The notes under the pieces are model-generated. The model saw only the letters and a program-made list of their open reading frames with translations. It was not told where the DNA came from and made no database searches. Shown piece after piece: positions 4,679 through 49,383 of a stretch of DNA of 64,000 nucleotides. The stretch's first letter is position 1. Every line of letters starts with the position of its first letter. Origin of the DNA: Lachnospiraceae bacterium (GTDB lineage Bacteria > Bacillota > Clostridia > Lachnospirales > Lachnospiraceae); the NCBI GenBank assembly GCA_017517305.1, contig JAFWZV010000010.1:62001-126000 (forward strand), read 5' to 3'. The position numbers and the translations under genes were made by a program.

Positions 4679-6079
4679 ATGATAAGGGAATTCAAGAGAA
4701 AATTCATAGGCGACAAGGAATTCTATAAGTACATAATATTTCTAGCCCTTCCTATGATTGCACAGAATGCCATAACAAGCTTTGTCAGCTTTCTGGATAA
4801 TATTATGGTTGGTAAGATTGGAACAGAGCAAATGTCCGGTGTTGCCATAGTTAACCAACTTATATTTGTATTTAACATAGCTATATTTGGAGCGGTTTCA
4901 GGAGCCGGAATATTTGGAACTCAGTTTTATGGCAAGGGAGATTACGAAGGGCAAAAGTATGCATTTCGATTTAAGATGTACGCGGCAGTTTGTATAACAG
5001 CTATAGCCTTGTATTTATTCTTCTTCGCAGGAACGGAGCTTATTAATCTGTATCTTACAGATAGCGGTGATGTGGGCGATATAGGTCTTGCATTAAAGTA
5101 TGGTGAAGAATATTTAGGTATAATGATGATAGGACTTGTTCCTTTTGCCCTAAGTCAGACCTACATAAATTCCATTAGGGAGACGGGGCACACAGTAATT
5201 CCTATGGTTGCAGGAATTGTGGCTATGCTTACAAACCTAGCACTTGATATTATCTTAATATTTGGCATAGATGGTTTTGTACCTGCTATGGGTGTAAAGG
5301 GTGCGGCAATAGCAACAGTAATATCGAGATTTGCAGAATTTATTATAGTTGTTATATGGACTCATACTCATAAGGAGAAGAATCCATACATTAAAGGTGC
5401 ATATAAGGGATTCAGCATACCAAGGAGAATACTTAAGGATATTCTTATTACAGGAACTCCACTTATGGTAAATGAGTTCTTATGGGCAGCAGGTATGGCA
5501 ACCATAGTGCAATGCTACGCAGTCAGGGGATTAGAGGTTGTGGCAGCTCAGAATATATCATCTACCATAACAAACCTTTTCAACGTAGTATATATACAGC
5601 TTGGTGCCTGTATAGCCATAGTGGTTGGTCAGAGACTTGGAGCAGGTCTTATAGATGAAGCTAGGGATGTGGCTAGAAAGATGATGTTCTTTAGTGTTGT
5701 TGCCTGTGCTTTTGTGGCTGTAATTATGATTATTGTTGGTGGATATTTTCCAGATATATATGAGACCGAGGAAAGCATAAAGGATTTGGCAAGAACATTT
5801 ATAACTATATCGGCTATAATAATGCCAGTTTGTGCTTTCTGTCACTGTAGCTACTTTACATTAAGGTCAGGAGGAAAGACAATTATTACCTTCCTTTTTG
5901 ATAGCGTGTACACATGGGTAATTGTAATTCCTGTGGCTACATTACTTGCCAAGTACACTAGCTTAGGGATAGCGCTAGTATTTTTGTTAGTACAAAGCTT
6001 AGAATTCATTAAGGCTATAATCGGATTCTTTATGGTAAAGAGTGGAGTATGGCTTAATAATATGGTAGAAAAAATATAA
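4679..6079 (+). CDS. MATE family multidrug efflux transporter
   Basis: A 466-residue polytopic protein, the usual MATE length, with about 12 predicted helices in two similar halves. Family-typical segments include the first-helix stretch LALPMIAQNAITSFVSFLDNI followed by MVGKIGTEQMSGVAI, NLALDIILIFG at the end of the first half and GTPLMVNEFLWAAG at the start of the second. MATE proteins expel cationic drugs and metabolites using H+ or Na+ gradients. The GTGAGGCG upstream (4662-4669) is an acceptable ribosome site. No regulator is adjacent; substrate unknown. Confidence 0.92.
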   Translation: MIREFKRKFIGDKEFYKYIIFLALPMIAQNAITSFVSFLDNIMVGKIGTEQMSGVAIVNQLIFVFNIAIFGAVSGAGIFGTQFYGKGDYEGQKYAFRFKMYAAVCITAIALYLFFFAGTELINLYLTDSGDVGDIGLALKYGEEYLGIMMIGLVPFALSQTYINSIRETGHTVIPMVAGIVAMLTNLALDIILIFGIDGFVPAMGVKGAAIATVISRFAEFIIVVIWTHTHKEKNPYIKGAYKGFSIPRRILKDILITGTPLMVNEFLWAAGMATIVQCYAVRGLEVVAAQNISSTITNLFNVVYIQLGACIAIVVGQRLGAGLIDEARDVARKMMFFSVVACAFVAVIMIIVGGYFPDIYETEESIKDLARTFITISAIIMPVCAFCHCSYFTLRSGGKTIITFLFDSVYTWVIVIPVATLLAKYTSLGIALVFLLVQSLEFIKAIIGFFMVKSGVWLNNMVEKI

Positions 6080-38476: not shown

Positions 38477-39613
38477 ATGTCAGAACAGCTTAGAGATAAT
38501 TACTTTTTGGCAGTAAAGATTATTATGCTTATTGCCCTGGAATTATATATAGCATTAACTAAGAATGTTTTAACAGGAGCATCTGGAATGGTGCTCCTGC
38601 TTTTGGCGCTTCTAATAGGTTGTTTTTCTCTTGTTCAGCTCTTAGATAAACTGAGAAGATGGATGTGCTTATGTGGGTGTATTATATTACTTATTGTAAT
38701 TACTACTAACATAGACAAAGCATTTGTATTATTAGGTATTTGTTTGGCATATGATATCATTTCTTATTTGAAACCTAGCTTTATATGGTACTTTACACCG
38801 TTAATATTTGGAATTATTGAGAGCGATATTAACTCTTATGTAAGAATACTTGCATGCCTGTTCATAGGAATTATACATATTCAACATGACTTTATTGTTG
38901 AGTCATATAGAAAGCAAACTGTGGAGGATACTCTATCTGAACAGCAACTTAAGAAAAATATATATAAGAAGGAGCATGAGATGCAGGAGGAGATGCGAAA
39001 AGGTTTGCTTCAGGCAGAGAATCAGCTCCTTGAGGAGAGAACACAGCTTTCTCAAACCTTGCATGATAAGCTTGGACATAATATTAACGGTTCGGTATAT
39101 CAGCTTGAGGCCATAAAGGTTATAATGGATAAAGAGCCTGAAACATCTAAGAGGATGATTCAGGGAGTAATAGATCAGCTTAGAACAGGTATGGATGAAA
39201 TAAGGGCTATTCTAAGAAAGGAAAGACCTAAGAAATACAGACTTGCCACAATTCAGCTAGAGAAACTATGTGAGGATTGTGTCAGTAAGGGTGTAGATGC
39301 CAAGCTTGTTACAGATGGTGATTTATCTAATGTTCCTGATAAGTATTTGGAAATTGTATTGGATAATGCGTACGAGGCAGTGTCAAATGCTATGAAATAC
39401 GCAAGATGTACTAAGATAGAGATTAAAATACATGTGCTTAATCAAATGCTTAGATGTAGCATATCAGATAATGGTATTGGCTGTAAGGAGATAGAAGACG
39501 GTATGGGAATCTCCGGTATGCGTAGAAGAGTAAGAGACGTAAATGGTGTATTAGATTTTGAAACAGAGGCAGGATTTACAATTAATATGCTGCTGCCGAT
39601 TAATGAGGGTTAA
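38477..39613 (+). CDS. Sensor histidine kinase, NarL/DesK type
   Basis: A 378-residue kinase: five or six membrane helices in the first 130 residues with almost no external sensing domain, a coiled-coil (about 150-190), HisKA_3-type phospho-acceptor TLHDKLGHNINGS (His196), and ATPase motifs LDNAYEAVSNAMKYA (N-box) and DNGIGC/GISGMRRRV. The intramembrane-sensing plan is like kinases linked to ABC exporters. It is followed 4 bp later by its response regulator. Likely it senses an envelope signal and controls the ABC genes upstream. Confidence 0.9.
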   Translation: MSEQLRDNYFLAVKIIMLIALELYIALTKNVLTGASGMVLLLLALLIGCFSLVQLLDKLRRWMCLCGCIILLIVITTNIDKAFVLLGICLAYDIISYLKPSFIWYFTPLIFGIIESDINSYVRILACLFIGIIHIQHDFIVESYRKQTVEDTLSEQQLKKNIYKKEHEMQEEMRKGLLQAENQLLEERTQLSQTLHDKLGHNINGSVYQLEAIKVIMDKEPETSKRMIQGVIDQLRTGMDEIRAILRKERPKKYRLATIQLEKLCEDCVSKGVDAKLVTDGDLSNVPDKYLEIVLDNAYEAVSNAMKYARCTKIEIKIHVLNQMLRCSISDNGIGCKEIEDGMGISGMRRRVRDVNGVLDFETEAGFTINMLLPINEG

Positions 39614-39617
39614 GAAT

Positions 39618-40256
39618 ATGGATAAGATAAAGGTAATAATTGCAGATGATAGTGATTTCGTAAGAGACGGAATGAGAATAATACTTAGCGTTGATGAGGA
39701 GTTTGAGGTTATAGGCTGTGCTTCGAATGGTAGAGAAGCCATAGAAATAGCCAAGGATAATGCGCCTGATATATTTCTTATGGACATTCAGATGCCAGAG
39801 ATGGATGGTATAGAAGCTACAAAGTACATAGTAGAAAATAATCTTGGCAAGGTACTTATTCTTACAACCTTTGATGATGATGAACTTGTTCAGCAAGCCT
39901 TAAGTAACGGAGCCAAGGGTTATCTTATTAAAAATCACACTCCTGAGCACCTCAAGCAGATGATTAAGTCGGTATATAATGGAACAGGAGTTATGGAGGA
40001 AAATATATTAGAGAACCTTACAAAGAACAGTGAGGTTAAGTCATCGAGCTTTAATGAGGAAGGATATACAGCTAGAGAGATGGATATTATTAAGGCTGTG
40101 GCTGATGGTTTGTCTAATAAGGAGATTGCTAATAAGCTATTTATAAGTGAGGGAACTGTTAAGAATTATATAACTTCAATACTTGCTAAGGAGAATCTTT
40201 CTCATAGAACAGCCCTTGCTGTTTATTATCTAACAGGTAAAAAGCAGGGGGAGTAA
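39618..40256 (+). CDS. LuxR/NarL family response regulator
   Basis: A 212-residue regulator: receiver with phospho-acceptor Asp56 (LMDIQMPEMDG), Thr in LILTTFDDDE and Lys in GAKGYLIKN, then a LuxR helix-turn-helix (YTAREMDIIKAVADGLSNKE, IANKLFISEGTVKNYITSIL). The ATG at 39618 is chosen because upstream in-frame codons overlap the kinase gene. It forms the partner of the preceding kinase; the operon order ATPase, two permeases, kinase, regulator suggests autoregulation of an export system. Confidence 0.92.
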   Translation: MDKIKVIIADDSDFVRDGMRIILSVDEEFEVIGCASNGREAIEIAKDNAPDIFLMDIQMPEMDGIEATKYIVENNLGKVLILTTFDDDELVQQALSNGAKGYLIKNHTPEHLKQMIKSVYNGTGVMEENILENLTKNSEVKSSSFNEEGYTAREMDIIKAVADGLSNKEIANKLFISEGTVKNYITSILAKENLSHRTALAVYYLTGKKQGE

Positions 40257-40267
40257 AGGGGGGAATT

Positions 40268-40918
40268 ATGCGCATTTTATGTATCGGAGACAGTAACACC
40301 TGGGGCTATGACCCAGTGGATGGATTTAGACATAAAAATAGATGGACAAGGGTTTTGGCTAGTCTTATGCCAGAGCACGAGATTATAGAAGAGGGGCTAA
40401 ATGGCAGAACTATACTTAGCGTTGACCCATACATGCCAGAAAGGTGTCTTATACATAATCTCAAGCTTATTTTGATGTCCCATAAGCCCGTTGATATGGT
40501 GGTGCTTATGGTGGGAAGTAATGAGCTAAAAAATACATTTCCATGTACTGCAAAATACATTGCACAGGGCATAGAGGAATGTGTTAAGATTATGCTTAAT
40601 AAGGATATGTGGGATAGATTTAATGTTCCTAAACTTTTTATTGTTTCTCCAATACTAATCAGAGATGAGATGGTAACAAATGGTGGCGCATTTGCCTGGG
40701 AGTTTGATGAGACAAGTGTGAGAGAGTCTAAGCTTTTGGCAGAGGAATATAAGAAGATTTGTGAAAAATATCAGCTAGAGTTTATGGATGCATCTTTATA
40801 TGCAGAGGCTTCGCTGGTAGATAATCTTCATATGGATGAGGAAAACCATAAAAAGCTGGCAAAGGCTATGTATGATAAATTGAGAACTTCTAATTTATAT
40901 AATAAAAGGGAGGCTTGA
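40268..40918 (+). CDS. SGNH/GDSL hydrolase (acetylhydrolase-like)
   Basis: A 216-residue SGNH hydrolase: block I ILCIGDSNTWGYDP (nucleophile Ser9), block III LMVGSNELKNTF (Asn), and the C-terminal Asp/His pair in LVDNLHMDEENHKK. The family includes arylesterases and acetyl-xylan or peptidoglycan deacetylases. No signal peptide is present, so it acts in the cytosol. It follows the response regulator by 11 bp. Its stop lies inside the hairpin that starts the toxin-like module downstream. Confidence 0.88.
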   Translation: MRILCIGDSNTWGYDPVDGFRHKNRWTRVLASLMPEHEIIEEGLNGRTILSVDPYMPERCLIHNLKLILMSHKPVDMVVLMVGSNELKNTFPCTAKYIAQGIEECVKIMLNKDMWDRFNVPKLFIVSPILIRDEMVTNGGAFAWEFDETSVRESKLLAEEYKKICEKYQLEFMDASLYAEASLVDNLHMDEENHKKLAKAMYDKLRTSNLYNKREA

Positions 40919-40933
40919 TTTATCGAGCCTCCC
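40900..40933 (-). terminator. Terminator of toxin-like transcript, copy 1
   Basis: On the - strand GGGAGGCT pairs with AGCCTCCC (40908-40915/40926-40933), followed by TTTTATT. The equivalent stem in copy 2 is GGAAGGCTT/AAGCCTTCC: both arms changed together, so the stem is conserved. Confidence 0.75.
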
Positions 40934-41050
40934 AGTGTATAATCTACATAGGAAGCAATCGGAAGCGATTTCTGGTTGCCCTCAGTATTTATACTTATTA
41001 AGAAATAAGCATCCTACTTAATGGCGGTTAGAGGATGCTTATTTCTTTTT
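40915..41050 (+). ncRNA. Candidate antisense antitoxin RNA, copy 1
   Basis: Promoter TTGATT (40915-40920), 17-bp spacer, TATAAT (40938-40943). The RNA would start near 40950, contain a GCAATCG/CGATTTCTGGTTGC hairpin and end at AGAAATAAGCATCCT/AGGATGCTTATTTCT (41001-41046) plus T run. It is about 100 nt and complementary to the 3' part of the toxin-like mRNA, including its last codons. The same promoter, spacing and terminator occur in copy 2 (46535-46668). Confidence 0.65.
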
Positions 41051-41122
41051 ATTATGTCTGTCGATATATGTCAATGCAGCGAAAACTAAAATCAATAAGT
41101 CAATAATCTCGTGTGTAGTCAT
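41039..41122 (-). CDS. Small hydrophobic type I toxin-like peptide, copy 1
   Basis: A 27-residue peptide: MTTHEI, one hydrophobic helix (IDLLILVFAALTYI) and a basic tail DRHNKKK. This is the plan of Fst/TxpA/holin-like type I toxins, which insert in the membrane. AAGGAGG (41131-41137) lies 8 bp before ATG 41122; a second in-frame ATG at 41128 is too close to the site. The ribosome site can be masked by GAGGG/CCCTC pairing (41146-41150 with 41130-41134), another type I trait. Copy 2 (46657) encodes the identical peptide with seven synonymous changes. Confidence 0.8.
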   Translation of the reverse strand: MTTHEIIDLLILVFAALTYIDRHNKKK

Positions 41123-41195
41123 CGGCATCCCCTCCTTATGTACTAGAGGGCAACTTGAGAAATTCGCATCCACTTCCCGTAGAAAATACAAGAAT

Positions 41196-41224
41196 ATTAT
41201 AACATAAAACGAACATATGTTCAA
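41196..41224 (-). promoter_or_regulatory. Toxin-like gene promoter with LexA (SOS) box
   Basis: On the - strand: TTGAAC (41219-41224), 17-bp spacer, TATAAT (41196-41201). The palindrome GAACATATGTTC (41211-41222) covers the -35; read on the + strand, CGAACATATGTTCA matches 13 of 14 positions of the Bacillus LexA box CGAACRNRYGTTYC. DNA damage control is therefore likely. Confidence 0.72.
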
Positions 41225-41320
41225 TGGCTTGCGCGTATGTATACAATAAATTATTGTGGAGAAAAAGTTTTTATAGTAATATATTCTTATAAGGTAATTG
41301 TGGATGAGGTGACACTCAAA

Positions 41321-41761
41321 ATGAAAGATAAGATAATAAAAAGAATATTAATAATTATATTATTTTTAATGGTTTGTATTAGCTTTTTCGTACCATGGTT
41401 CACGATAAATCCAGTGGTAATGGGTTATATTCCAGGTATTATTATTTTCCCCGGAATTATAAGCATAACATTGATTTATCTAGCTGTATTTTTGGTTACA
41501 AAATTACACGATAAAATTTCCGTAATAGTGGCAGAAGTATGCGCTATTGCTGTCATTGTAATTTCAGTTCTATCCCTGGGACAATGGCCAGTAGTATGGA
41601 TGATTTCAGATGATTTCAAATGGAAACTAGAGTACACTGTTCCTACATATTGGCTATCCCTAGGAATACAGGTGCTATTCTTTATAGTATTGCAATTTGT
41701 AATAAAAAATAGGAAAAACATATCTAAAGATAATGATGAGTGTAAAGGATTTAATTGGTAA
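41321..41761 (+). CDS. Four-helix membrane protein
   Basis: A 146-residue protein: basic start MKDKIIKR, helices at about 7-26, 36-56, 64-84 and 108-130, and a short polar C-terminus. GAGGTGA (41305-41311) lies 9 bp before ATG 41321; the frame extends upstream into the toxin-like promoter, but without a ribosome site. No family is recognised. The acetyltransferase gene follows immediately. Confidence 0.6.
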   Translation: MKDKIIKRILIIILFLMVCISFFVPWFTINPVVMGYIPGIIIFPGIISITLIYLAVFLVTKLHDKISVIVAEVCAIAVIVISVLSLGQWPVVWMISDDFKWKLEYTVPTYWLSLGIQVLFFIVLQFVIKNRKNISKDNDECKGFNW

Positions 41762-41766
41762 AGAAT

Positions 41767-42249
41767 ATGAATAATAAAAACGAACTAACCTACCGTTTCG
41801 CAACAATTGAAGATATAGACATCTTAGTATCCACCAGAATGGATATTCTTATAGATATGCTTAAGCTAGATCCAGATACAGATATGTCAGAGCTTGAAGC
41901 AGCCACAAGGCCTTACTATGAAAGGGCTATTGCTGATGGAACTCAGCTTGCGGTACTAGTATTTGATGGAGATAAATTTGTAGGTGCAGGAGCAGTGTGT
42001 CTTTATGCGGTTATGCCAACCTTTTACAATATAAGTGGCAAGAGAGGATATATTATGAATATGTACACCTGTCCTGAGTATAGAGGTCGTGGAATTGCTA
42101 CTAAAACCGTGGATATGCTTGTAAATAAGTGTAAGGAATTAGGATACACACATATCACCCTTGCTGCTACAGACATGGGTCAGCCAGTATATGAAAGATA
42201 TGGCTTTAAAAAGCAGGAAGACCAAATGGTTTATAAGATTACAGATTAA
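41767..42249 (+). CDS. GNAT acetyltransferase
   Basis: A 160-residue GNAT: YRFATIEDIDILVSTRMDIL, KRGYIMNMYTCPEYRGRGIATKTVDMLVNKCKE with the acetyl-CoA motif YRGRGIATK, and HITLAATDMGQPVYERYGFKKQED. It resembles GNATs annotated as N-acetyltransferases near maltose-acetyltransferase-like genes. The ribosome site is weak, so translation may depend on the preceding gene. Its end touches the next gene's upstream region. Confidence 0.85.
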   Translation: MNNKNELTYRFATIEDIDILVSTRMDILIDMLKLDPDTDMSELEAATRPYYERAIADGTQLAVLVFDGDKFVGAGAVCLYAVMPTFYNISGKRGYIMNMYTCPEYRGRGIATKTVDMLVNKCKELGYTHITLAATDMGQPVYERYGFKKQEDQMVYKITD

Positions 42250-42266
42250 TGAAAAGAGGATTAGTA

Positions 42267-42899
42267 ATGACAGATAAGCTATTAACTGAAAAAGAAAAGA
42301 TGATTGCAGGGAAAATATATGATCCATCGGGAGAAGAATTGGCAAAGGGTCGAGCTAAGGCCCACAGACTTTGCTCAGACTATAATTGTACCTATGAGGA
42401 AGAGGAGGAGAAGAGATTATCTATCCTTAAGGAGTTAATTCCAACACTTTCTAAGGGTGTGTATCTTCAGGGTCCAATACAGTTTGACTATGGTTACAAT
42501 ACATTTATAGGGGAAAATTCCTATGCGAATTTTAATTTTACAGTTTTAGATTGTAGCACTGTAACCATTGGTAAGGATGTGTTTTTCGGACCAAATGTTA
42601 GCCTTGTCACTCCTGTGCATCCATATCTTCCAGAGGAGAGAAGAATGCGCTTTAGAGAGGATGGCTCAGCCTACGATTTAGAGTATGCTAAGCCTATAGT
42701 AATCGGTGATGACTGTTGGTTTGGGTCAAATGTAACTGTAATTGGTGGTGTTACCATAGGAAGTGGAACAATAATTGGTGCAGGAAGCGTTGTTACCAAG
42801 GATATCCCATCGGGAGTGTTGGCCGCAGGCAATCCATGTAGGGTTATAAGAGAGCTTACACAGTCGGATTCCATAGAGCTAAAGAAGGAATTGTGGTAA
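42267..42899 (+). CDS. Sugar O-acetyltransferase, maltose/galactoside acetyltransferase-like
   Basis: A 210-residue left-handed beta-helix enzyme of the LacA/Maa type: Mac domain at the start (KMIAGKIYDPSGEELAKGRAKAHRL), then hexapeptide repeats (DYGYNTFIGENSYANFNFT, VLDCSTVTIGKDVFFGPNV) with the catalytic His in TPVHPY, and IGGVTIGSGTIIGAGSVVTKDIPSGVLAAGNPCRVIR. It transfers acetyl from acetyl-CoA to sugar hydroxyls. AGAGGA precedes ATG 42267. Confidence 0.92.
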   Translation: MTDKLLTEKEKMIAGKIYDPSGEELAKGRAKAHRLCSDYNCTYEEEEEKRLSILKELIPTLSKGVYLQGPIQFDYGYNTFIGENSYANFNFTVLDCSTVTIGKDVFFGPNVSLVTPVHPYLPEERRMRFREDGSAYDLEYAKPIVIGDDCWFGSNVTVIGGVTIGSGTIIGAGSVVTKDIPSGVLAAGNPCRVIRELTQSDSIELKKELW

Positions 42900-42926
42900 A
42901 AAACAAATATTACGGAGATATTTGAT

Positions 42927-43982
42927 TTGAAGGATATAAAAAAAATTAAGGATAAATTTAATATAACTGAGAAGTCTATTAAGTATAAGACTGCACTTGG
43001 AAGAGAGAAGACTATAAGAAAGTCCAGTTTGAGCAAGGCTTATCTAGATGAAAAGAAAAATAAATATTATTTCTATAATAAAGATAATGAAAAGCTATTC
43101 TCGATTAGTAGAAAAATAAGTGGTAGTGAAGAGCTTATTGATGATTTTATTCAAATAGTCTCAGATAATAAGGCTGGAGAACTGGGATTTATTATGGAGC
43201 CTGTGCTTGAAGAACTTTTGGAGAAGGAAAGGCCTGTATCAGAAAAATATATTAAAAGAGTGAAGAAGTGGAGCAATATATGGTGTGGACTTAATTTTAT
43301 GTTCTATGTGATACTAGCTATCATCATTTCTGCTGGTAATGTGCTATCTATAGATAAGTATGCGGCCTTAATTTGTGTACCAATATTAAATATGTATACA
43401 TTTGCCTGGAAATTTAGTGATGTAGTAAGCTGGTGTGAGCCAGGGAAAATTAATAAATATGAACCAACTAAGGAATATAGAATGCGAATAAATAAGTGGA
43501 AAAAAAACCATGTGGTTTATATGATGCATTTTATAATTATTATGCTTCCGTTTTTTGTATTATCCACACCGGTGTGGAACATGGGTATAAGTATAATTAA
43601 GGGGGAAATACTACTTTATTTGTTTGCATTTGCAATAACTATAGCTATAGTATGTTTGTTTGTGCCTCGAATTGGTAAACACAAATCAAAACTTTTCGAT
43701 TATATCTCCTTAAGCATACTTACATTGGGAATATCATTGTTGTTGTCATATTGTATTATAACTGTGTCTGGTAAAGAGACATGTAGATATGAATCACCTA
43801 TTAATGAATTTAATCGGTCGGAGAAGGATGGTGATTATATCATGGTTGGTATAAATATTGATGGGGAAACCAAACTACAAGATTTTGATGCGGACAATAT
43901 TAATGTTACAAAAGATTTGGCTCAGGTTGTACACTATGAGGGGTTACTTGGCGTAGAATGGGTTAGAATATATATAGATTAA
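42927..43982 (+). CDS. Hypothetical membrane protein with TTG start
   Basis: A 351-residue protein. The N-terminal 110 residues are cytosolic and basic (KDIKKIKDKFNITEKSIKYK), followed by helices at about 115-136, 143-163, 192-212, 219-241 and 253-273 and a polar C-terminal domain (EKDGDYIMVGINIDGETKL). The first internal Met is near residue 91, so a TTG start at 42927, 9 bp after GGAG, fits best. No family is recognised; a role cannot be inferred from the neighbours. Confidence 0.6.
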   Translation: MKDIKKIKDKFNITEKSIKYKTALGREKTIRKSSLSKAYLDEKKNKYYFYNKDNEKLFSISRKISGSEELIDDFIQIVSDNKAGELGFIMEPVLEELLEKERPVSEKYIKRVKKWSNIWCGLNFMFYVILAIIISAGNVLSIDKYAALICVPILNMYTFAWKFSDVVSWCEPGKINKYEPTKEYRMRINKWKKNHVVYMMHFIIIMLPFFVLSTPVWNMGISIIKGEILLYLFAFAITIAIVCLFVPRIGKHKSKLFDYISLSILTLGISLLLSYCIITVSGKETCRYESPINEFNRSEKDGDYIMVGINIDGETKLQDFDADNINVTKDLAQVVHYEGLLGVEWVRIYID

Positions 43983-44006
43983 TGTATTGATTAAGGAGGA
44001 ATTAGT

Positions 44007-44936
44007 ATGTCTAATATTTATACATCAGTAGATCAGCTTGTAGGAAGAACTCCTATACTCGAGCTGGCGCATATAGAAAAAGAATATGATTTAAAGGCTA
44101 GATTACTTGCCAAGCTAGAGTATTTTAATCCTGCAGGTTCCATAAAGGATCGTGTAGGTAAGGGAATGATTGAGGCGGCGGAAAAGTCGGGACAGTTAAA
44201 ACCTGATTCAGTTATTATAGAACCAACCTCAGGCAATACAGGCATAGGTCTAGCATCTGTAGCAACTTCCAAAGGCTATAGATGTATCATAGTTATGCCA
44301 GATACTATGTCTGAGGAGAGAAGAAAGCTTATTAGAGCCTATGGCGCCGAGCTTGTGCTTTCTGAAGGAAGCAAGGGTATGGCTGGAGCTATAGAAAAAG
44401 CTGAGGTGCTTAAAGCTGAGATTCCTAATAGTATAATAGCAGGACAGTTTGTAAATCCGGAAAATCCTAGAGTTCACTTTGAGACAACTGGTCCGGAAAT
44501 ATATGAGGATACAGATGGAGATGTGGATATTCTAGTTGCAGGTGTTGGAACAGGCGGTACCATTACAGGGATCGGACAGTATCTTAAGTCTAAGAAGCCG
44601 GATGTAAAGGTGGTTGCAGTAGAACCTGCATCATCACCACTTTTGTCTACCGGAAAGGCAGGACCTCATGGCTTGCAAGGGATTGGTGCCAATTTTGTAC
44701 CTGAGATTTTAGATACTAAGGTTTATGATGAGATTATAACAGTTACAGAGCAGGATGCTTATGATAAAGCTTCTATGGTGGGTAAAAAGGAAGGATTCTT
44801 GGTTGGAATATCCTCAGGAGCAGCACTTTGGGCAGCTATAGAGGTTGCAAAACGTCCTGAAAATGAAGGAAAAAATATAGTTGTAATTCTGCCGGATGGT
44901 GGAGATAGGTATTACTCTACACCGATATTTGAATAA
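44007..44936 (+). CDS. cysK: Cysteine synthase A (O-acetylserine sulfhydrylase)
   Basis: A 309-residue PLP enzyme with the CysK signatures: NPAGSIKDR with the Schiff-base Lys47, EPTSGNTGIGLA (substrate loop), GVGTGGTITGIGQYLK (phosphate-binding glycine loop) and GISSGAA near the C-terminus. It makes L-cysteine from O-acetylserine and sulfide. Length and motif order match CysK rather than cystathionine beta-synthase. AAGGAGG lies 9 bp upstream. No other sulfur genes are close. The palindrome after its stop doubles as terminator and PadR operator. Confidence 0.95.
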   Translation: MSNIYTSVDQLVGRTPILELAHIEKEYDLKARLLAKLEYFNPAGSIKDRVGKGMIEAAEKSGQLKPDSVIIEPTSGNTGIGLASVATSKGYRCIIVMPDTMSEERRKLIRAYGAELVLSEGSKGMAGAIEKAEVLKAEIPNSIIAGQFVNPENPRVHFETTGPEIYEDTDGDVDILVAGVGTGGTITGIGQYLKSKKPDVKVVAVEPASSPLLSTGKAGPHGLQGIGANFVPEILDTKVYDEIITVTEQDAYDKASMVGKKEGFLVGISSGAALWAAIEVAKRPENEGKNIVVILPDGGDRYYSTPIFE

Positions 44937-44952
44937 TTTTTTTAAAATTTCA

Positions 44953-44992
44953 TCACGGCTACTTGACAATACAAAGTAGCTGTGATATTTTT
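44953..44992 (+). terminator. Hairpin after cysK that repeats the PadR operator
   Basis: ATCACGGCTACTT (44953-44965) pairs with AAGTAGCTGTGAT (44973-44985), then ATTTTTTATTT. The loop side contains TTGACA. The central 23-bp palindrome GCTACTTGACAATACAAAGTAGC recurs at 45000-45022. Confidence 0.7.
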
Positions 44993-45032
44993 TATTTAAG
45001 CTACTTGACAATACAAAGTAGCTTAATAATAG
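44963..45032 (+). promoter_or_regulatory. PadR promoter region with duplicated palindromic operator
   Basis: GCTACTTGACAATACAAAGTAGC occurs at 44958-44980 and 45000-45022, 42 bp apart (about four helical turns). Each copy embeds a TTGACA -35 (44963-44968 and 45005-45010); -10 candidates are TATTTT (44986) and TAATAG (45027-45032). A PadR dimer bound here would block both promoters. Confidence 0.65.
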
Positions 45033-45077
45033 CTATTATGAAAACCAAGACATTAATATGAATATGGGAGGAATTAT

Positions 45078-45419
45078 ATGGACGATACACAATTAATGAA
45101 GGGTATCCTAGAAGGTTGTGTATTATCAGTTATCGCAAGGGGAGAGACCTACGGTTATGAGATTTTAACTGAGATGGAGCGTGTAGGCTTTGATGATTTA
45201 GGAGAAGGAACCCTATATCCGGTGCTTACCAGACTAGATAAGAATGGGTATATTTCCTGTAGAAAGGCTAAATCACCACTAGGACCAATTAGAAAGTATT
45301 ATACCATAACTGATACAGGTCGTGAGAGACTGGATGGCTTTAAGAAAAGCTACAGCAAGATAACAGATAGTACAAATAAGGTTTTATTCGGGGAATCAAA
45401 TATTAAGAGGGAGGAATAA
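45078..45419 (+). CDS. PadR family transcriptional regulator
   Basis: A 113-residue PadR protein: LMKGILEGCVLSVIARGETYGYEI, the winged-helix signature GEGTLYPVLTRLDKNGYISCRK, and a short C-terminal dimerisation helix. PadR regulators repress operons for detoxification or membrane stress. GGGAGG precedes the ATG. It sits 2 bp before its partner gene, and the duplicated palindrome upstream is the probable autoregulatory operator. Confidence 0.93.
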   Translation: MDDTQLMKGILEGCVLSVIARGETYGYEILTEMERVGFDDLGEGTLYPVLTRLDKNGYISCRKAKSPLGPIRKYYTITDTGRERLDGFKKSYSKITDSTNKVLFGESNIKREE

Positions 45420-45421
45420 CT

Positions 45422-46504
45422 ATGATTGATACATTAGCTATGGCCAACTTGTTAAAGGGAGAGTATAAGGAGGCTTTTACAAAGATTGATATGTTCGGTA
45501 GCATGGGGAATGTGAACATAGATATCTACGAGGACAGAATATTGAATCTGTATGATATGTTTATGGAAGCACAGGAAGAGGGGAAGCCTGTGGAGAAGAT
45601 TATCGGTAAAGATATAGAGGGGTTCTGCAAGGCATATTATAACTGCAGCGAGGAGAAAAAGTGGTATGTAGACTTGGCTAAGAGATTTTGCAACATAATG
45701 ACAATATTATTTGTATATTGCTTGTTGGAGATCTTTTGGGTAAGGGAGGATAAGATAGTCTTCTTTGAAGATAGAATTAATATCATGCCTATAGTGGTTG
45801 GATTAATTGTTGGATTTATACTTGTTGGCCTTGGAAAGCTTATTAATAAGCAGGTTACATTTAAGAAGGAAAAGGTTAATCCGGCGCCGTATTCCATATT
45901 GCTATTGGTGGTATTTGTTGTAGGAGTTATATTCGCTCCTTTATTTAAGGATGACATTAATATATCTTTACCTCTTGGTGTCACAACAATTGTGTCGGGA
46001 GCTATTACAGGAATATATTTGCTTACTATAATTATAATAAAGATTGTTAATAGGGATAAGAATAAGCTTCTTAAGGAAGAAAAGGCACAGCGTAAGGAAG
46101 TTCTTGATGAGATAGAGTTTAGGGCTGGAATCAAGGATGTAGCTGATGGCATGGTTACTAGATATAATAAAAAGGTTACAAAGCACCAGAAGAAGGGCAA
46201 GACTTATACCTATGATGAATTCATCCAAAGCATACGTAAGGAGATTAAGGATGAAAAACAGTGTAATATTGTTGTAGGGGTGATTTTGCTAATCTGGGCC
46301 GGAATCAATGTGGTTAAATGCTTCTTTGAACCTGAACCAATACCTTTGATTGTATTTACAGTAATATTAATCGTGGTTGAAATATTCATATACAAATGGT
46401 TTGTAAAGTTCAATAGGGAGCAGACTATGTCCTATGAGATTATACTTGGGGAATGTGAGAAGAGGGATATAACTGTTGATGAATATGTAAAAGAGATGGA
46501 ATAA
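45422..46504 (+). CDS. DUF1048-like membrane protein, PadR partner
   Basis: A 360-residue protein. Residues 1-80 resemble the DUF1048 helical domain (RILNLYDMFMEAQEEGKPVE, KIIGKDIEGFCKAYYNC), followed by helices at about 95-115, 124-142, 160-180 and 190-210, a long basic helix, and two more helices at about 289-325. PadR genes are often paired with DUF1048 or DUF1700 proteins whose substrate is unknown. GGGAGG overlaps the end of padR and is 9 bp before the ATG, so the pair is coupled. Confidence 0.75.
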   Translation: MIDTLAMANLLKGEYKEAFTKIDMFGSMGNVNIDIYEDRILNLYDMFMEAQEEGKPVEKIIGKDIEGFCKAYYNCSEEKKWYVDLAKRFCNIMTILFVYCLLEIFWVREDKIVFFEDRINIMPIVVGLIVGFILVGLGKLINKQVTFKKEKVNPAPYSILLLVVFVVGVIFAPLFKDDINISLPLGVTTIVSGAITGIYLLTIIIIKIVNRDKNKLLKEEKAQRKEVLDEIEFRAGIKDVADGMVTRYNKKVTKHQKKGKTYTYDEFIQSIRKEIKDEKQCNIVVGVILLIWAGINVVKCFFEPEPIPLIVFTVILIVVEIFIYKWFVKFNREQTMSYEIILGECEKRDITVDEYVKEME

Positions 46505-46520
46505 GGTAAAAACAGATATT

Positions 46521-46553
46521 TGTAAAAGGAAGGCTTGATTTCTCAAGCCTTCC
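46521..46553 (-). terminator. Terminator of toxin-like transcript, copy 2
   Basis: GGAAGGCTT pairs with AAGCCTTCC (46528-46536/46545-46553); on the - strand it is followed by TTTTACA. It covaries with the copy 1 stem. Confidence 0.7.
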
Positions 46554-46668
46554 AGTATATAATCTACTTAGGAAGCAATCGGAATACGATTTCTGGTTGC
46601 CCTCAGTGAATATGTCTATTGAAATAGCATCCTACACTTTGGACGGTTGGAGGATGCTATTTCTTTTT
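46535..46668 (+). ncRNA. Candidate antisense antitoxin RNA, copy 2
   Basis: Promoter TTGATT (46535-46540), 17-bp spacer, TATAAT (46558-46563), identical in form to copy 1. The RNA would start near 46570 and end at GAAATAGCATCCT/AGGATGCTATTTC (46621-46663) plus T run. It overlaps the last codons of the peptide gene on the other strand. Confidence 0.65.
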
Positions 46669-46740
46669 GTTATGTCTGTCTATGTATGTCAATGCAGCGA
46701 AAACTAAAATCAACAAGTCTATTATCTCATGTGTAGTCAT
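46657..46740 (-). CDS. Small hydrophobic type I toxin-like peptide, copy 2
   Basis: Encodes the same 27-residue peptide as copy 1 (41039-41122). Compared codon by codon, all seven differences (His, three Ile, Leu, Tyr and Asn codons) are synonymous and the stop is TAG instead of TAA. The ribosome site AAGGAGG and the GAGGG/CCCTC masking hairpin upstream are unchanged. The promoter has diverged (TTGAAC-17-TAATAT) and its LexA box is incomplete. Confidence 0.78.
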   Translation of the reverse strand: MTTHEIIDLLILVFAALTYIDRHNKKK

Positions 46741-46813
46741 CGGCATCCCCTCCTTATGTACTAGAGGGCAATCAAGAAAATCGCATCTACTTCCTGTTCG
46801 ATTATACAATATC

Positions 46814-46842
46814 ATATTAACATAATTTCGGATATTGTTCAA
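46814..46842 (-). promoter_or_regulatory. Toxin-like gene promoter, copy 2
   Basis: On the - strand: TTGAAC (46837-46842), 17-bp spacer, TAATAT (46814-46819). The GAAC half of the LexA box is kept; the GTTC half is replaced by ATATCC. Confidence 0.55.
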
Positions 46843-46894
46843 ACGGAAATGCAAAATATTATAGTATTATTCGATGCGATATAATCAAGTTTTA

Positions 46895-46903
46895 TGTTAT
46901 AAT
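46895..46903 (+). promoter_or_regulatory. Extended -10 promoter of the second FtsX-type exporter
   Basis: TGTTATAAT (46895-46903), about 80 bp before the permease start; the -35 is poor. Confidence 0.45.
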
Positions 46904-46983
46904 AAAATTGTTAAATCTTTTAAGGAATTTTTAATAATTTATATATTATTATCCAAGCAGATAGATTAAGAAGGAGGCAAATT

Positions 46984-49383
46984 ATGAATTTTAAGATTTT
47001 AAAAAGAAGCTTAAAAAGTAAGAAAACCATTAATTTTATACTGCTTGTTTTTATTATGTTAGCAGCTATGTTTATAGCAGGTAGTGTGAATAATCTTATT
47101 CTTATAACAGGTGGTTTGAATTCCTACTTTGAGAAGGCAGAGGTTGGTGACTATGTAATAATATCTTGTGTAGGAGGGAGTGCGGAAAACCCTCTTGAAG
47201 CCCAGGTTATGCTGGAGGATTATCTGACTGAAAATGAATATGTTGACAGCTACACTATGGATCATGCGATCCTTACTGGAAATAGTCAGATTAAAAAGGA
47301 GGATGGTTCAGACCTTGAATTAAATGGTACAGTATTAATTATGTCCTATAATTCAAAGCAACAAAAGTACTTTGATGAGCATAACAAGGAGATAACTAAT
47401 GTGGAGGATGGTTCTATATACCTTCCTAGAAGAGAGTTTGAGGCAAGCGATTTAAAGATAGGTGATAAGCTTAGCTTTAAAATGTCCGATGGCACTGTTA
47501 TGAAGCTTACTGTTAAGGGAATGTGTAAGGATGCCTGTCTAGGTTCTGATATGATGGGTACTCACAGATTCATTGTTAGTGAAAATGACATGGATAGACT
47601 TCTTGCTGATGGAGGTTACTTGTATAGTAGACTATATTCCCTTGAATTAAACAACTTAGAAGAGTTCAAAAATGAATATGCAAAGCAGGATATTCCAGTT
47701 GTATTTGGAGATGCTAAAGATACATTTAAGATTGGCTACATAATGGATATGATTATAGCTGCAATATTTATTATTGCATCTATACTTCTTGTGATTATAT
47801 CTGTTGTAATCTTAAGATTTGCTATAGTCTTTACAGTTAATGAGGATTACAAGGAAATAGGTATTATGAAGGCTATAGGTATTGGCGATAAGGGAATCAG
47901 AAAGCTGTATGTTATGAAATATATGTTGATTTCTGTAGTTGGCGCACTTATAGGATTTGGTCTAAGTATTCCATTTTCGGATGCATTAATTAGGTCTGCC
48001 ATGAGGAATATGGTTATAGAAAATGGTGGAAGTAATATATTAATTCAGCTTGTAATATGTATAGTTGTGGCAGTGGTAGTAATTCTATTTGCTTACCTCA
48101 GTACATCTAAAATTAAGAAATTAACTCCTATGGATGCCATAAGAAGTGGAAACAATGGGGAAAGATTTAAACGCAAGGGATTAATTAAGCTTCATGGAAG
48201 TAGAAAAGAAACAACCACATTTATGGCATTTAATGATGTATTTAGTGAGTTGAAGAAGTATCTTATATTACTTTTTGCTACTATGATAGGTGTGTGGATG
48301 GTAGTAATGCCAATTAATACCATAAACACTCTTCGATCAGAAAAAATTGCCGATTGGTTTTCAGTACAGGTTTCAGATATTGTTATTTCCAACGAGGTAG
48401 CATTTAATGAAGTTTCTACCAATGCCAATAAACAAGGATATTATGATTTGATGGATGAAACTGAAGAAATTATTGAGAATAATGGTTATGAAGTTGGAGA
48501 AACCTATATGGAGATAGGTTGGCAGGGAATTAAGGTGACATTTGGTGATAAGGTTACTAAAACCATTGTTTTCCAAGGCTTAGGAACGGACACATCTGAT
48601 TATGTGTATACAAAAGGTTCAGCTCCAAAATACGAAAATGAAATTGCCATGACTCATGTTGTAGCGAAAAGACTTGGCGTAGATATTGGAGATACAGTAT
48701 ATATATCCATAAAGGGGGAAGATAAGCCTTTTGTTATAACTGCTATATATCAGTCCATGAATAATAATGGTGAAGGAATAAGAGTTACAGAGACTGTAGA
48801 GCTTGATTACTCCTTAGTATCATTCTGCTTTGGTGTACAGTGCGACTTTATAGATGACTTAACTGATGAGGAAAAAGAGAAGGCTATAGATAAGCTTGAA
48901 GTAGCAATGCCAGAATGTCAGGTTGAAAGCTTTATTGAATTTATAGATAGAATGATAGGTGGTATATCGGATATGCTAGTTCCTATCAAGTATGCTATGC
49001 TTGGTATTGTAATAGTAGTAAACATTCTAATTGTTGTTCTTATGCAGAAAATGTTTCTGGTTCGTGAGCGAGGGGAGATGGCTATGCTTAAATCAATAGG
49101 ATTTTCTAATGGGAAAATAATAAGCTGGCAGACCAAAAGAATTGCCATAGTACTATTCCTTGGAGTAGTCCTTGGAACACTTACAGGAACACCTTTCTCT
49201 CAGCTTACATCAGGTCAGGTGTTTAAGTTTATGGGAGCTAGTAAGATTGAATTTGATATTAATTATCTTGAGGTATATGTAATATACCCACTAGTAATAT
49301 TTGCAGCATCAGTTCTTATGTGTATGGTCACAATGCTTAGCGTTAGAAAGATAACTGTAAATGATATGAATGAGATTGAGTAA
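46984..49383 (+). CDS. FtsX-like ABC transporter permease
   Basis: A 799-residue permease: first helix (about 16-38), ectodomain (40-245), three helices (about 255-282, 308-330, 352-374), a basic linker, a helix near 425-445, a second ectodomain (450-660), then helices near 668-692, 718-742 and 766-790. It has the two FtsX modules of the MacB/LolC superfamily, and NEDYKEIGIMKAIGI and REMAMLKSIGF-like segments mark the coupling helices. The ATPase follows after 25 bp. Substrate class: peptides, lipids or antimicrobial compounds. AAGGAGG precedes the ATG. Confidence 0.9.
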   Translation: MNFKILKRSLKSKKTINFILLVFIMLAAMFIAGSVNNLILITGGLNSYFEKAEVGDYVIISCVGGSAENPLEAQVMLEDYLTENEYVDSYTMDHAILTGNSQIKKEDGSDLELNGTVLIMSYNSKQQKYFDEHNKEITNVEDGSIYLPRREFEASDLKIGDKLSFKMSDGTVMKLTVKGMCKDACLGSDMMGTHRFIVSENDMDRLLADGGYLYSRLYSLELNNLEEFKNEYAKQDIPVVFGDAKDTFKIGYIMDMIIAAIFIIASILLVIISVVILRFAIVFTVNEDYKEIGIMKAIGIGDKGIRKLYVMKYMLISVVGALIGFGLSIPFSDALIRSAMRNMVIENGGSNILIQLVICIVVAVVVILFAYLSTSKIKKLTPMDAIRSGNNGERFKRKGLIKLHGSRKETTTFMAFNDVFSELKKYLILLFATMIGVWMVVMPINTINTLRSEKIADWFSVQVSDIVISNEVAFNEVSTNANKQGYYDLMDETEEIIENNGYEVGETYMEIGWQGIKVTFGDKVTKTIVFQGLGTDTSDYVYTKGSAPKYENEIAMTHVVAKRLGVDIGDTVYISIKGEDKPFVITAIYQSMNNNGEGIRVTETVELDYSLVSFCFGVQCDFIDDLTDEEKEKAIDKLEVAMPECQVESFIEFIDRMIGGISDMLVPIKYAMLGIVIVVNILIVVLMQKMFLVRERGEMAMLKSIGFSNGKIISWQTKRIAIVLFLGVVLGTLTGTPFSQLTSGQVFKFMGASKIEFDINYLEVYVIYPLVIFAASVLMCMVTMLSVRKITVNDMNEIE

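What the first reader, a model, noticed from the sequence alone, without database searches (positions are those of the whole stretch)
41039..41122. Duplicated 27-residue hydrophobic peptide gene under strong purifying selection
The - strand frames at 41039-41122 and 46657-46740 encode identical 27-residue peptides (acidic start, one hydrophobic helix, DRHNKKK tail). Their DNA differs in seven codons, all synonymous, plus TAA/TAG stops. In so short a gene this pattern is strong evidence of selection on the protein. The size, helix and basic end are those of type I toxins. Gene finders usually miss such frames.
Basis: partly seen in the sequence, partly recalled or inferred. Interest (0 to 1): 0.88.

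Follow-up and report, generated by a model that had tools for sequence, protein, structure and literature searches.

The report
Twin toxin–antisense RNA modules

Summary
In detail: two minus-strand frames encode the same 27-residue peptide and differ by seven synonymous codons. The type I toxin reading is supported and now has a likely antitoxin. Each copy is a cassette of about 300 bases: sense promoter, structured leader, peptide, terminator, and a convergent plus-strand promoter. That promoter would drive an antisense RNA of about 100 nt whose terminator lies on the toxin's stop and lysine codons. A profile finds relatives in 81 of 397 genomes of the family, some of them longer Hol_Tox peptides. 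Others lie in ICE-like and phage contexts. Two mutually exclusive pairings are conserved in the window's class: leader CCCUC with the ribosome-binding site, or leader with the 3' UTR. In models the second opens the site and antisense binding closes it. This resembles published bsrG/SR4. The peptide is related to Pfam Hol_Tox minus four residues but fails the Pfam and NCBIfam cut-offs, and the RNA fails Rfam's. New member of a known kind; no expression or toxicity data here.

The parts
41196..41224 (-). copy 1 toxin promoter, TTGAAC-17-TATAAT with TG before the -10
   Evidence: 77 of 88 class A cassettes have an extended -10 pattern upstream
41146..41171 (-). copy 1 leader, GGATGC to CCCTC; pairs with the 3' UTR (GAGGGCAA, 40976-40983), or its CCCTC (41146-41150) pairs with the ribosome-binding site
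41129..41135 (-). copy 1 ribosome-binding site GGAGGGG
41039..41122 (-). copy 1 toxin frame, 27 aa
41001..41050 (+). copy 1 antisense terminator: hairpin (arms 41001-41015 and 41032-41046) followed by T-run on the Lys codons 41042-41050
   Evidence: not reported by the simple terminator scan
40915..40943 (+). copy 1 antisense promoter TTGATT-17-TATAAT
   Evidence: ATTATA (its -10 on the other strand) in the expected interval in 84 of 88 class A cassettes
40950..41050 (+). copy 1 predicted antisense antitoxin RNA, about 101 nt
   Evidence: ends inferred from the -10 and the T-run
40904..40933 (-). copy 1 toxin mRNA terminator hairpin and T-run
   Evidence: T-run in 83 of 88 class A cassettes; the simple terminator scan reported none here
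46814..46842 (-). copy 2 toxin promoter, weaker (TTGAAC-17-TAATAT)
   Evidence: read; not reported by the scan
46764..46787 (-). copy 2 leader, GATGC to CCCTC; pairs with GAGGGCAA at 46597-46604
46747..46753 (-). copy 2 ribosome-binding site GGAGGGG
46657..46740 (-). copy 2 toxin frame, 27 aa
46621..46668 (+). copy 2 antisense terminator: hairpin (arms 46621-46633 and 46651-46663) and T-run on the Lys codons 46660-46668
   Evidence: not reported by the simple terminator scan
46535..46563 (+). copy 2 antisense promoter TTGATT-17-TATAAT
46570..46668 (+). copy 2 predicted antisense antitoxin RNA, about 99 nt
   Evidence: weak Rfam ctRNA_pT181 match here (46584-46676, 32.6 bits against gathering 56, E 0.19), none on copy 1
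46524..46553 (-). copy 2 toxin mRNA terminator
   Evidence: not reported by the scan

Best explanation
Each copy is a complete type I toxin-antitoxin module. The minus strand encodes a small membrane toxin. The plus strand encodes a cis-antisense RNA of about 100 nt overlapping the toxin's last codons and 3' UTR. While the mRNA is nascent, leader CCCUC masks the ribosome-binding site. In the finished mRNA the 3' UTR captures the leader and exposes the site. The antisense RNA closely resembles the leader; it takes the leader's place on the 3' UTR, CCCUC falls back on the ribosome-binding site, and the duplex is probably cut by RNase III. Shown by sequence: the frames, promoter and terminator signals, the pairings and their conservation. 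Modelled: accessibility of the ribosome-binding site. Inferred: transcription, translation, toxicity, membrane action, RNase III.
For: Class A is 88 of 160 unique cassettes, picked by patterns that include the start-site, leader and 3' GAGGGC motifs; features outside the filter are antisense -10 in 84, extended sense -10 in 77, lysine-codon pattern in 83, T-run in 83 of 88. Leader-to-3'UTR duplex energy in 85 of the 88: cognate mean -29.7, permuted partners -27.7 (sd 0.27, best of 2000 -28.6), shuffled leader -12.8 kcal/mol. On the 44 rows of A3 both alternative structures form standard pairs in 89.5 and 90.0% of cells, with covariation scores that none of 500 shuffles reach. Ribosome-binding-site openness in 84 of those 85: nascent 0.04, full length 0.27, antisense-bound 0.05; opens in 78 of 84 and closes in 77 of 84. 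Shuffling the 3' UTR removes the opening (0.06; real higher in 77 of 84). Window copies: 0.15, 0.84, 0.15 and 0.15, 0.81, 0.15. The logic matches bsrG/SR4 as described in passages of PMC6562991.
Against: No RNA or protein evidence. Absolute opening in class A is modest (mean 0.27). The cognate preference is a mean effect: cognate beats the row mean in 62 of 85 and its median rank is 24 of 85. Further pair types do not exceed shuffles, and the counts treat related sequences as independent. In the 27 other short cassettes of A4 the opening is weak (13 of 24) although leader and 3' UTR still pair (24 of 27). Copy 2's toxin promoter is weak. The simple terminator scan found none in either region, and promoter-like hits were 6 against 3.3 expected and 3 against 3.2.
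Confidence: 0.82

Rival explanations
1. The peptide is a non-toxic regulator of membrane machinery, like ComI, the competence inhibitor of Bacillus plasmid pBS32, held in check by an antisense RNA.
For: NCBIfam ComI (profile of 30 positions) is the only family in NCBIfam, Pfam or PHROGs that P0001 touches at E up to 1 (E 0.0098, 15.7 bits), and 14 of 22 short relatives touch it (best 0.0091).
Against: 15.7 bits against a cut-off of 55. The layout (dual control, ICE and phage carriage, decayed copies) is that of an addiction module. In one search ComI also matched 24 of 32 rows of A2, which mixes short and 31-residue peptides, so the match does not separate ComI from Hol_Tox.
Confidence: 0.1
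2. The conserved thing is an RNA (regulatory sense and antisense pair) and the small frame is incidental.
For: Strong RNA structure: fold z-scores -8.3 and -6.6, conserved pairings, and constraint on lysine codons at the DNA level.
Against: Seven of seven silent changes and pN/pS 0.25; a good ribosome-binding site in front of the frame; peptide similarity survives when leader and UTR letters differ (A3, A4 and the 31-residue loci).
Confidence: 0.04
3. Phage holin-like lysis peptide carried by prophage remnants.
For: The Pfam relative is named putative holin-like toxin, and some relatives lie in phages, for example between terminase and portal genes (L198).
Against: The ten proteins scanned around the window copies show no phage Pfam family at E up to 0.001 (two of them match nothing); other relatives sit beside conjugation genes (21 of 171 loci). 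That a holin would not need a cis-antisense RNA is inference.
Confidence: 0.04

Closest known systems
bsrG/SR4 of Bacillus subtilis SP-beta (type I TA)
   Same: Small hydrophobic toxin with charged tail; antisense RNA overlapping the 3' end with 100-140 bp complementarity in this group of systems; antisense binding extends masking of the ribosome-binding site (passages of PMC6562991, and PMC8309996). That helix P1 of bsrG is a 5'-3' helix like this one is my inference from a figure legend.
   Different: Peptide 27 rather than 38 residues; not compared with BsrG by sequence; in bsrG masking goes from 4 to 8 bp, here the model is open versus closed.
Pfam PF16935 Hol_Tox
   Same: Profile-profile match of the short family to 16 peptides of 30-31 residues (98.2%, E 5.9e-14). 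Eight of those were among the 32 rows of A2, where Hol_Tox matched 13 rows with best E 9.3e-16. The longer loci keep leader-UTR pairing in 18 of 19.
   Different: Four residues, about one helical turn, are missing; P0001 has no match at E up to 1 and short relatives at best 0.077 (6 of 22).
timP/TimR and aapA3/IsoA3 (type I TAs with alternative mRNA folds)
   Same: Mutually exclusive folds control the ribosome-binding site; nascent mRNA is kept off (abstracts).
   Different: From Gram-negative bacteria; timP uses a pseudoknot; sequences not compared here.
ComI (NF052249), plasmid pBS32
   Same: Profile of 30 positions, on a mobile replicon; weak profile similarity.
   Different: Far below cut-off; described as an inhibitor of natural transformation (PMC10601692 passage).

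Membership tests
Type I toxin-antitoxin system | small hydrophobic peptide with charged tail, under selection | tested here: met
Type I toxin-antitoxin system | cis-antisense RNA gene overlapping the toxin mRNA (promoter and terminator in place) | tested here: met
   sequence only; the terminator is by inspection and folding, the simple scan missed it
Type I toxin-antitoxin system | antisense RNA is transcribed and blocks toxin synthesis | not testable with these tools
   no expression data
Type I toxin-antitoxin system | peptide is toxic when made alone | not testable with these tools
   bench test
PF16935 Hol_Tox | score over Pfam's gathering cut-off (23.3 bits) | tested here: not met
   P0001 no match at E up to 1; own genome none over the cut-off, two weaker matches elsewhere
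NCBIfam NF052249 ComI | score over the curated cut-off (55 bits) | tested here: not met
   15.7 bits
Rfam RF00242 ctRNA_pT181 | score over gathering (56 bits) | tested here: not met
   32.6 bits, E 0.19, copy 2 only; nothing at gathering in the window
bsrG/SR4-like control | antisense pairs with the 3' part, opens the 5'-3' helix and leads to masking of the ribosome-binding site | tested here: inconclusive
   supported by models and conservation in class A; only weakly by the accessibility model in other cassettes; no probing

The most novel reading that the evidence does not exclude
The antitoxin's recognition segment (terminator loop and linker, about 45 nt) is hypervariable between otherwise near-identical cassettes, like the loops that set plasmid incompatibility (recalled comparison), so that modules on different mobile elements do not neutralise one another. 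In 14 non-overlapping pairs with at most 3 differences in the frame, this segment differs at 14.5% of sites against 4.9% at synonymous sites, 4.4% in the leader and 6.7% in the 3' element, and the loop letters differ in 9 of 14 pairs. Against it: copies within one genome share loops no less often than chance (0.19 over 26 pairs against 0.15 between genomes), and block exchange without selection would look alike.
Probability: 0.25. Interest if true: 0.68.

Novelty: new member of a known kind. Interest (0 to 1): 0.47.

Why it matters
Frames this short are commonly left out of annotation (abstract start of PMC7667032 in the listing), and the RNA half is invisible to it. Here is a family found, longer relatives included, in about a fifth of sampled genomes of one gut bacterial family (81 of 397), carried in part on conjugative elements and phages, with enough natural variants to test an RNA switch by comparison. 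If it works as proposed it would help explain how such elements persist, and it shows an antitoxin RNA that resembles the leader of its own target.

Tried and rejected
Empty-site test in the one same-genus genome in the sample (G180): it has no copy, but the neighbours of copies 1 and 2 match there only at 30 and 33% identity, so the region is not shared and the test says nothing. Hol_Tox in the own genome: none over cut-off. Plasmid collection, queried with the peptide of relative L003 and not with P0001: no match; phage collection, same query: MT835472.1 at 84.6% and two weak Pseudomonas phage matches (E 8 and 9). Orphan antitoxin or relic in the own genome: a DNA search gave the two copies and ten short pieces at E 0.2 or worse, two of them on the other strand of copy 2 itself. 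Insulation between copies of one genome: it looked striking in three pairs, but sharing of loops within genomes is not lower than by chance; rejected as a within-genome rule. Slippery-frame reading of AAAAAG: by eye, in both window copies the base before AAAAAG is T or C rather than A; dropped without a count. Structure prediction: the peptide is too short for the tool. Literature: searches listed no account of this family in the held open-access library (listings, up to 20 shown each; one search matched 4,170 papers, of which 20 were listed); subscription papers and supplements were not seen.

Full report
CHECK. The two minus-strand frames 41122-41039 and 46740-46657 encode the same 27 residues. 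Seven codons differ, all silent, and the stops are TAA and TAG. Under uniform mutation the chance that all seven are silent is 1e-5 to 1e-4 depending on transition bias. The held genome shows no further copy; it is 98.7% complete in 25 contigs.

ANATOMY. Aligning the two regions shows that the shared unit is the cassette, from the leader to a terminator beyond the frame, with dissimilar flanks; 85% identity over 303 bases. On the minus strand copy 1 has TTGAAC-17-TATAAT with TG before the -10; copy 2 has a weaker TAATAT that the scan did not report. On the plus strand both copies have TTGATT-17-TATAAT, 10 of 12 matches, facing the frame. Promoter-like hits as such were 6 against 3.3 expected and 3 against 3.2, so it is position and conservation that count. 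The simple terminator scan found none in either region; the terminators are read from the sequence and the folds. The plus-strand RNA would start near 40950 or 46570 and end in a hairpin spanning the toxin's stop codon, followed by the complement of AAAAAGAAA, the lysine codons.

RELATIVES. With the single peptide 105 of 397 genomes of the same family match at E up to 1. With a 22-row profile 81 of 397 match at E up to 0.001; in both, part of the weaker matches are the longer Hol_Tox peptides. That the family is Lachnospiraceae is inferred: contigs of the same length turn up with that name (219056 and 73056 bases). In the order sample 10 of 196 match, 5 of them outside the family; in the class sample 3 of 391, all three inside it. 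A scan of named species gave 253 confirmed stretches, 80 kept, among them Roseburia, Blautia, Eubacterium ramulus, Butyribacter, Anaerostipes and Mediterraneibacter. IMG/VR gave 11 loci. Of 178 cassettes that passed the E-value, length and flank filters, 160 are unique, 11 of them of the longer type. 88 fall in class A, to which both window copies belong, by patterns that include the letters before the start codon, the leader GCCCTC-like motif and 3' GAGGGC. In these 88, features not used for the choice are: antisense -10 in 84, extended sense -10 in 77, lysine-codon pattern in 83, T-run in 83, post-stop arm in 78. At the last three codons of 146 short relatives AAA, AAG, AAA are used 93, 110 and 127 times, so the tail is constrained as DNA as well as protein. 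Pooled pN/pS is 0.25 over 3069 pairs, median 0.20 over 945 of them; the pairs are not independent.

THE RNA SWITCH. The leader is nearly complementary to the 3' UTR. In 85 of the 88 class A cassettes (copy 1 among them, copy 2 not, since its leader begins AGATGC) the leader pairs better with its own 3' UTR (-29.7) than with another's (-27.7, permutation sd 0.27, none of 2000 as low), and far better than a shuffled leader (-12.8 kcal/mol). It is a mean effect: cognate beats the row mean in 62 of 85, median rank 24. Leader base 6 and its 3' partner change together: where the partner was found, C faces G in 23 and T faces A in 18, with 11 other combinations (2 C-A, 1 C-T, 6 T-G, 2 T-T); in 33 of 85 the simple pattern found no partner. 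CCCTC has a second partner, the ribosome-binding site. Pair counts on 44 aligned cassettes support both. The 5'-3' helices plus the post-stop hairpin give 89.5% standard pairs, 7 pairs with changes on both sides (4 of 500 shuffles reach that) and a covariation score that none of 500 reach. The site-masking hairpin plus the post-stop hairpin and the 3' hairpin give 90.0% and 9 such pairs (0 of 500). The number of further pair types is not above shuffles in either (364 and 118 of 500). Sliding the partners by 1-3 columns drops pairing to 29-47%. Partition-function models of 84 of the 85 cassettes put openness of the ribosome-binding site at 0.04 in leader plus frame, 0.27 in full length and 0.05 with the antisense footprint blocked. 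Replacing the 3' UTR by dinucleotide shuffles gives 0.06. For the window copies the values are 0.15, 0.84, 0.15 and 0.15, 0.81, 0.15. The antisense RNA carries a segment that closely resembles the leader (by eye), so it could replace it.

LIMITS OF THE SWITCH. The 27 other short cassettes of A4 (mostly with another leader, class B; a few, such as L085 and L103, fit neither) and 19 longer Hol_Tox cassettes keep leader-UTR pairing (better than mononucleotide-shuffled leaders in 24 of 27 and 18 of 19). Opening is seen in only 13 of 24 and in 16 of 17, and is small in both. The antisense -10 letters of class A were found in only 6 of 19 Hol_Tox loci. So the layout is shared more widely than the exact model.

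PLACE AMONG KNOWN THINGS. P0001 matches no Pfam or PHROG family at E up to 1 and only ComI weakly in NCBIfam; PADLOC was not searched. The short family aligns with 30-31-residue relatives of the Hol_Tox kind, with a four-residue gap. Rfam has only a sub-threshold ctRNA_pT181 match on the antisense strand of copy 2. In B. subtilis, SR4 binds the 3' end of bsrG mRNA and extends masking of its ribosome-binding site from 4 to 8 bp, while RatA and SR5 are thought only to promote decay (passages of PMC6562991). Nascent-mRNA masking is known from aapA3 (abstract) and fold switching from timP (abstract and start of introduction). A review of clostridial type I systems centres on C. difficile and reports no sequence homology of its toxins with those studied elsewhere (abstract and section 3). 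[quoted passage not shown] Hence: works like bsrG/SR4; relative of Hol_Tox, not a member by the curated cut-off.

CARRIAGE. In 21 of 171 cassette loci (12 of 160 unique cassettes) the held flank carries a type IV coupling protein and an S1-domain gene of a conjugative element, or in one locus the S1 gene alone. Some places were fetched twice, and the flanks are short. In the six of them whose neighbours I mapped, the cassette lies just downstream of the S1-gene-sized frame; two of the six were identified with Pfam. Of the 11 IMG/VR loci I scanned neighbours of six: one cassette lies between terminase and portal genes, one near an integrase. The window copies sit among chromosomal genes: a two-component pair, a GDSL lipase, acetyltransferases, a PLP enzyme, a permease.

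HYPERVARIABLE SEGMENT. Cassettes nearly identical in leader, frame and 3' element can differ in the terminator loop and linker, for example L019 and L184 (leader 0.98, frame 1.00, segment 0.67, 3' element 1.00 identical). In 14 non-overlapping pairs the segment differs at 14.5% against 4.9% at synonymous sites (one-sided P 0.008); gaps were ignored, five pairs keep the loop, and the pairs are not corrected for phylogeny. L015, L167 and L174 share loop and linker in different combinations, which suggests block exchange. Binned by flank identity, pairs within one genome do not differ more in this segment than pairs between genomes, and copies in one genome do not avoid sharing loops.

VERDICT. 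A real duplicated locus with the full sequence anatomy of a type I module, antitoxin gene included; ordinary in kind, not described in the papers my searches listed, and unusually good material for testing a leader-mimicry switch.

Noticed in passing
L116, L117, L118, L148, L168, L181 (and 15 more loci): The cassette sits beside a conjugative coupling protein gene and an S1-domain gene, a recurrent address on ICE-like elements across several genera; the best named hit (L114, 74%) and two further copies from the same MAG (L176, L178) are in this context.
   Followed up: partly
L198 about 5001-5081; L194: Cassette between terminase large subunit and portal genes of a phage contig; another near an integrase.
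   Followed up: partly
L007 (363 bases apart), L019, L048, L066, L068: Tandem or close pairs of cassettes with nearly the same toxin but, in several, different antitoxin loops.
   Followed up: partly
L008, L066 (second copy), L073, L082, L098, L099, L105, L108: Copies with no in-frame ATG upstream of the conserved stretch, probably decayed, as expected of modules that can be lost.
   Followed up: no
L042 and most of the other cassettes of A4: A sister class with different leader and UTR letters (GGATAGTC and GGCTATCC) but the same layout.
   Followed up: partly
window 38477-49383: Two neighbour proteins tested match the only same-genus genome in the sample at just 30 and 33% identity, so the neighbourhood of both copies may be an accessory region.
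   Followed up: partly
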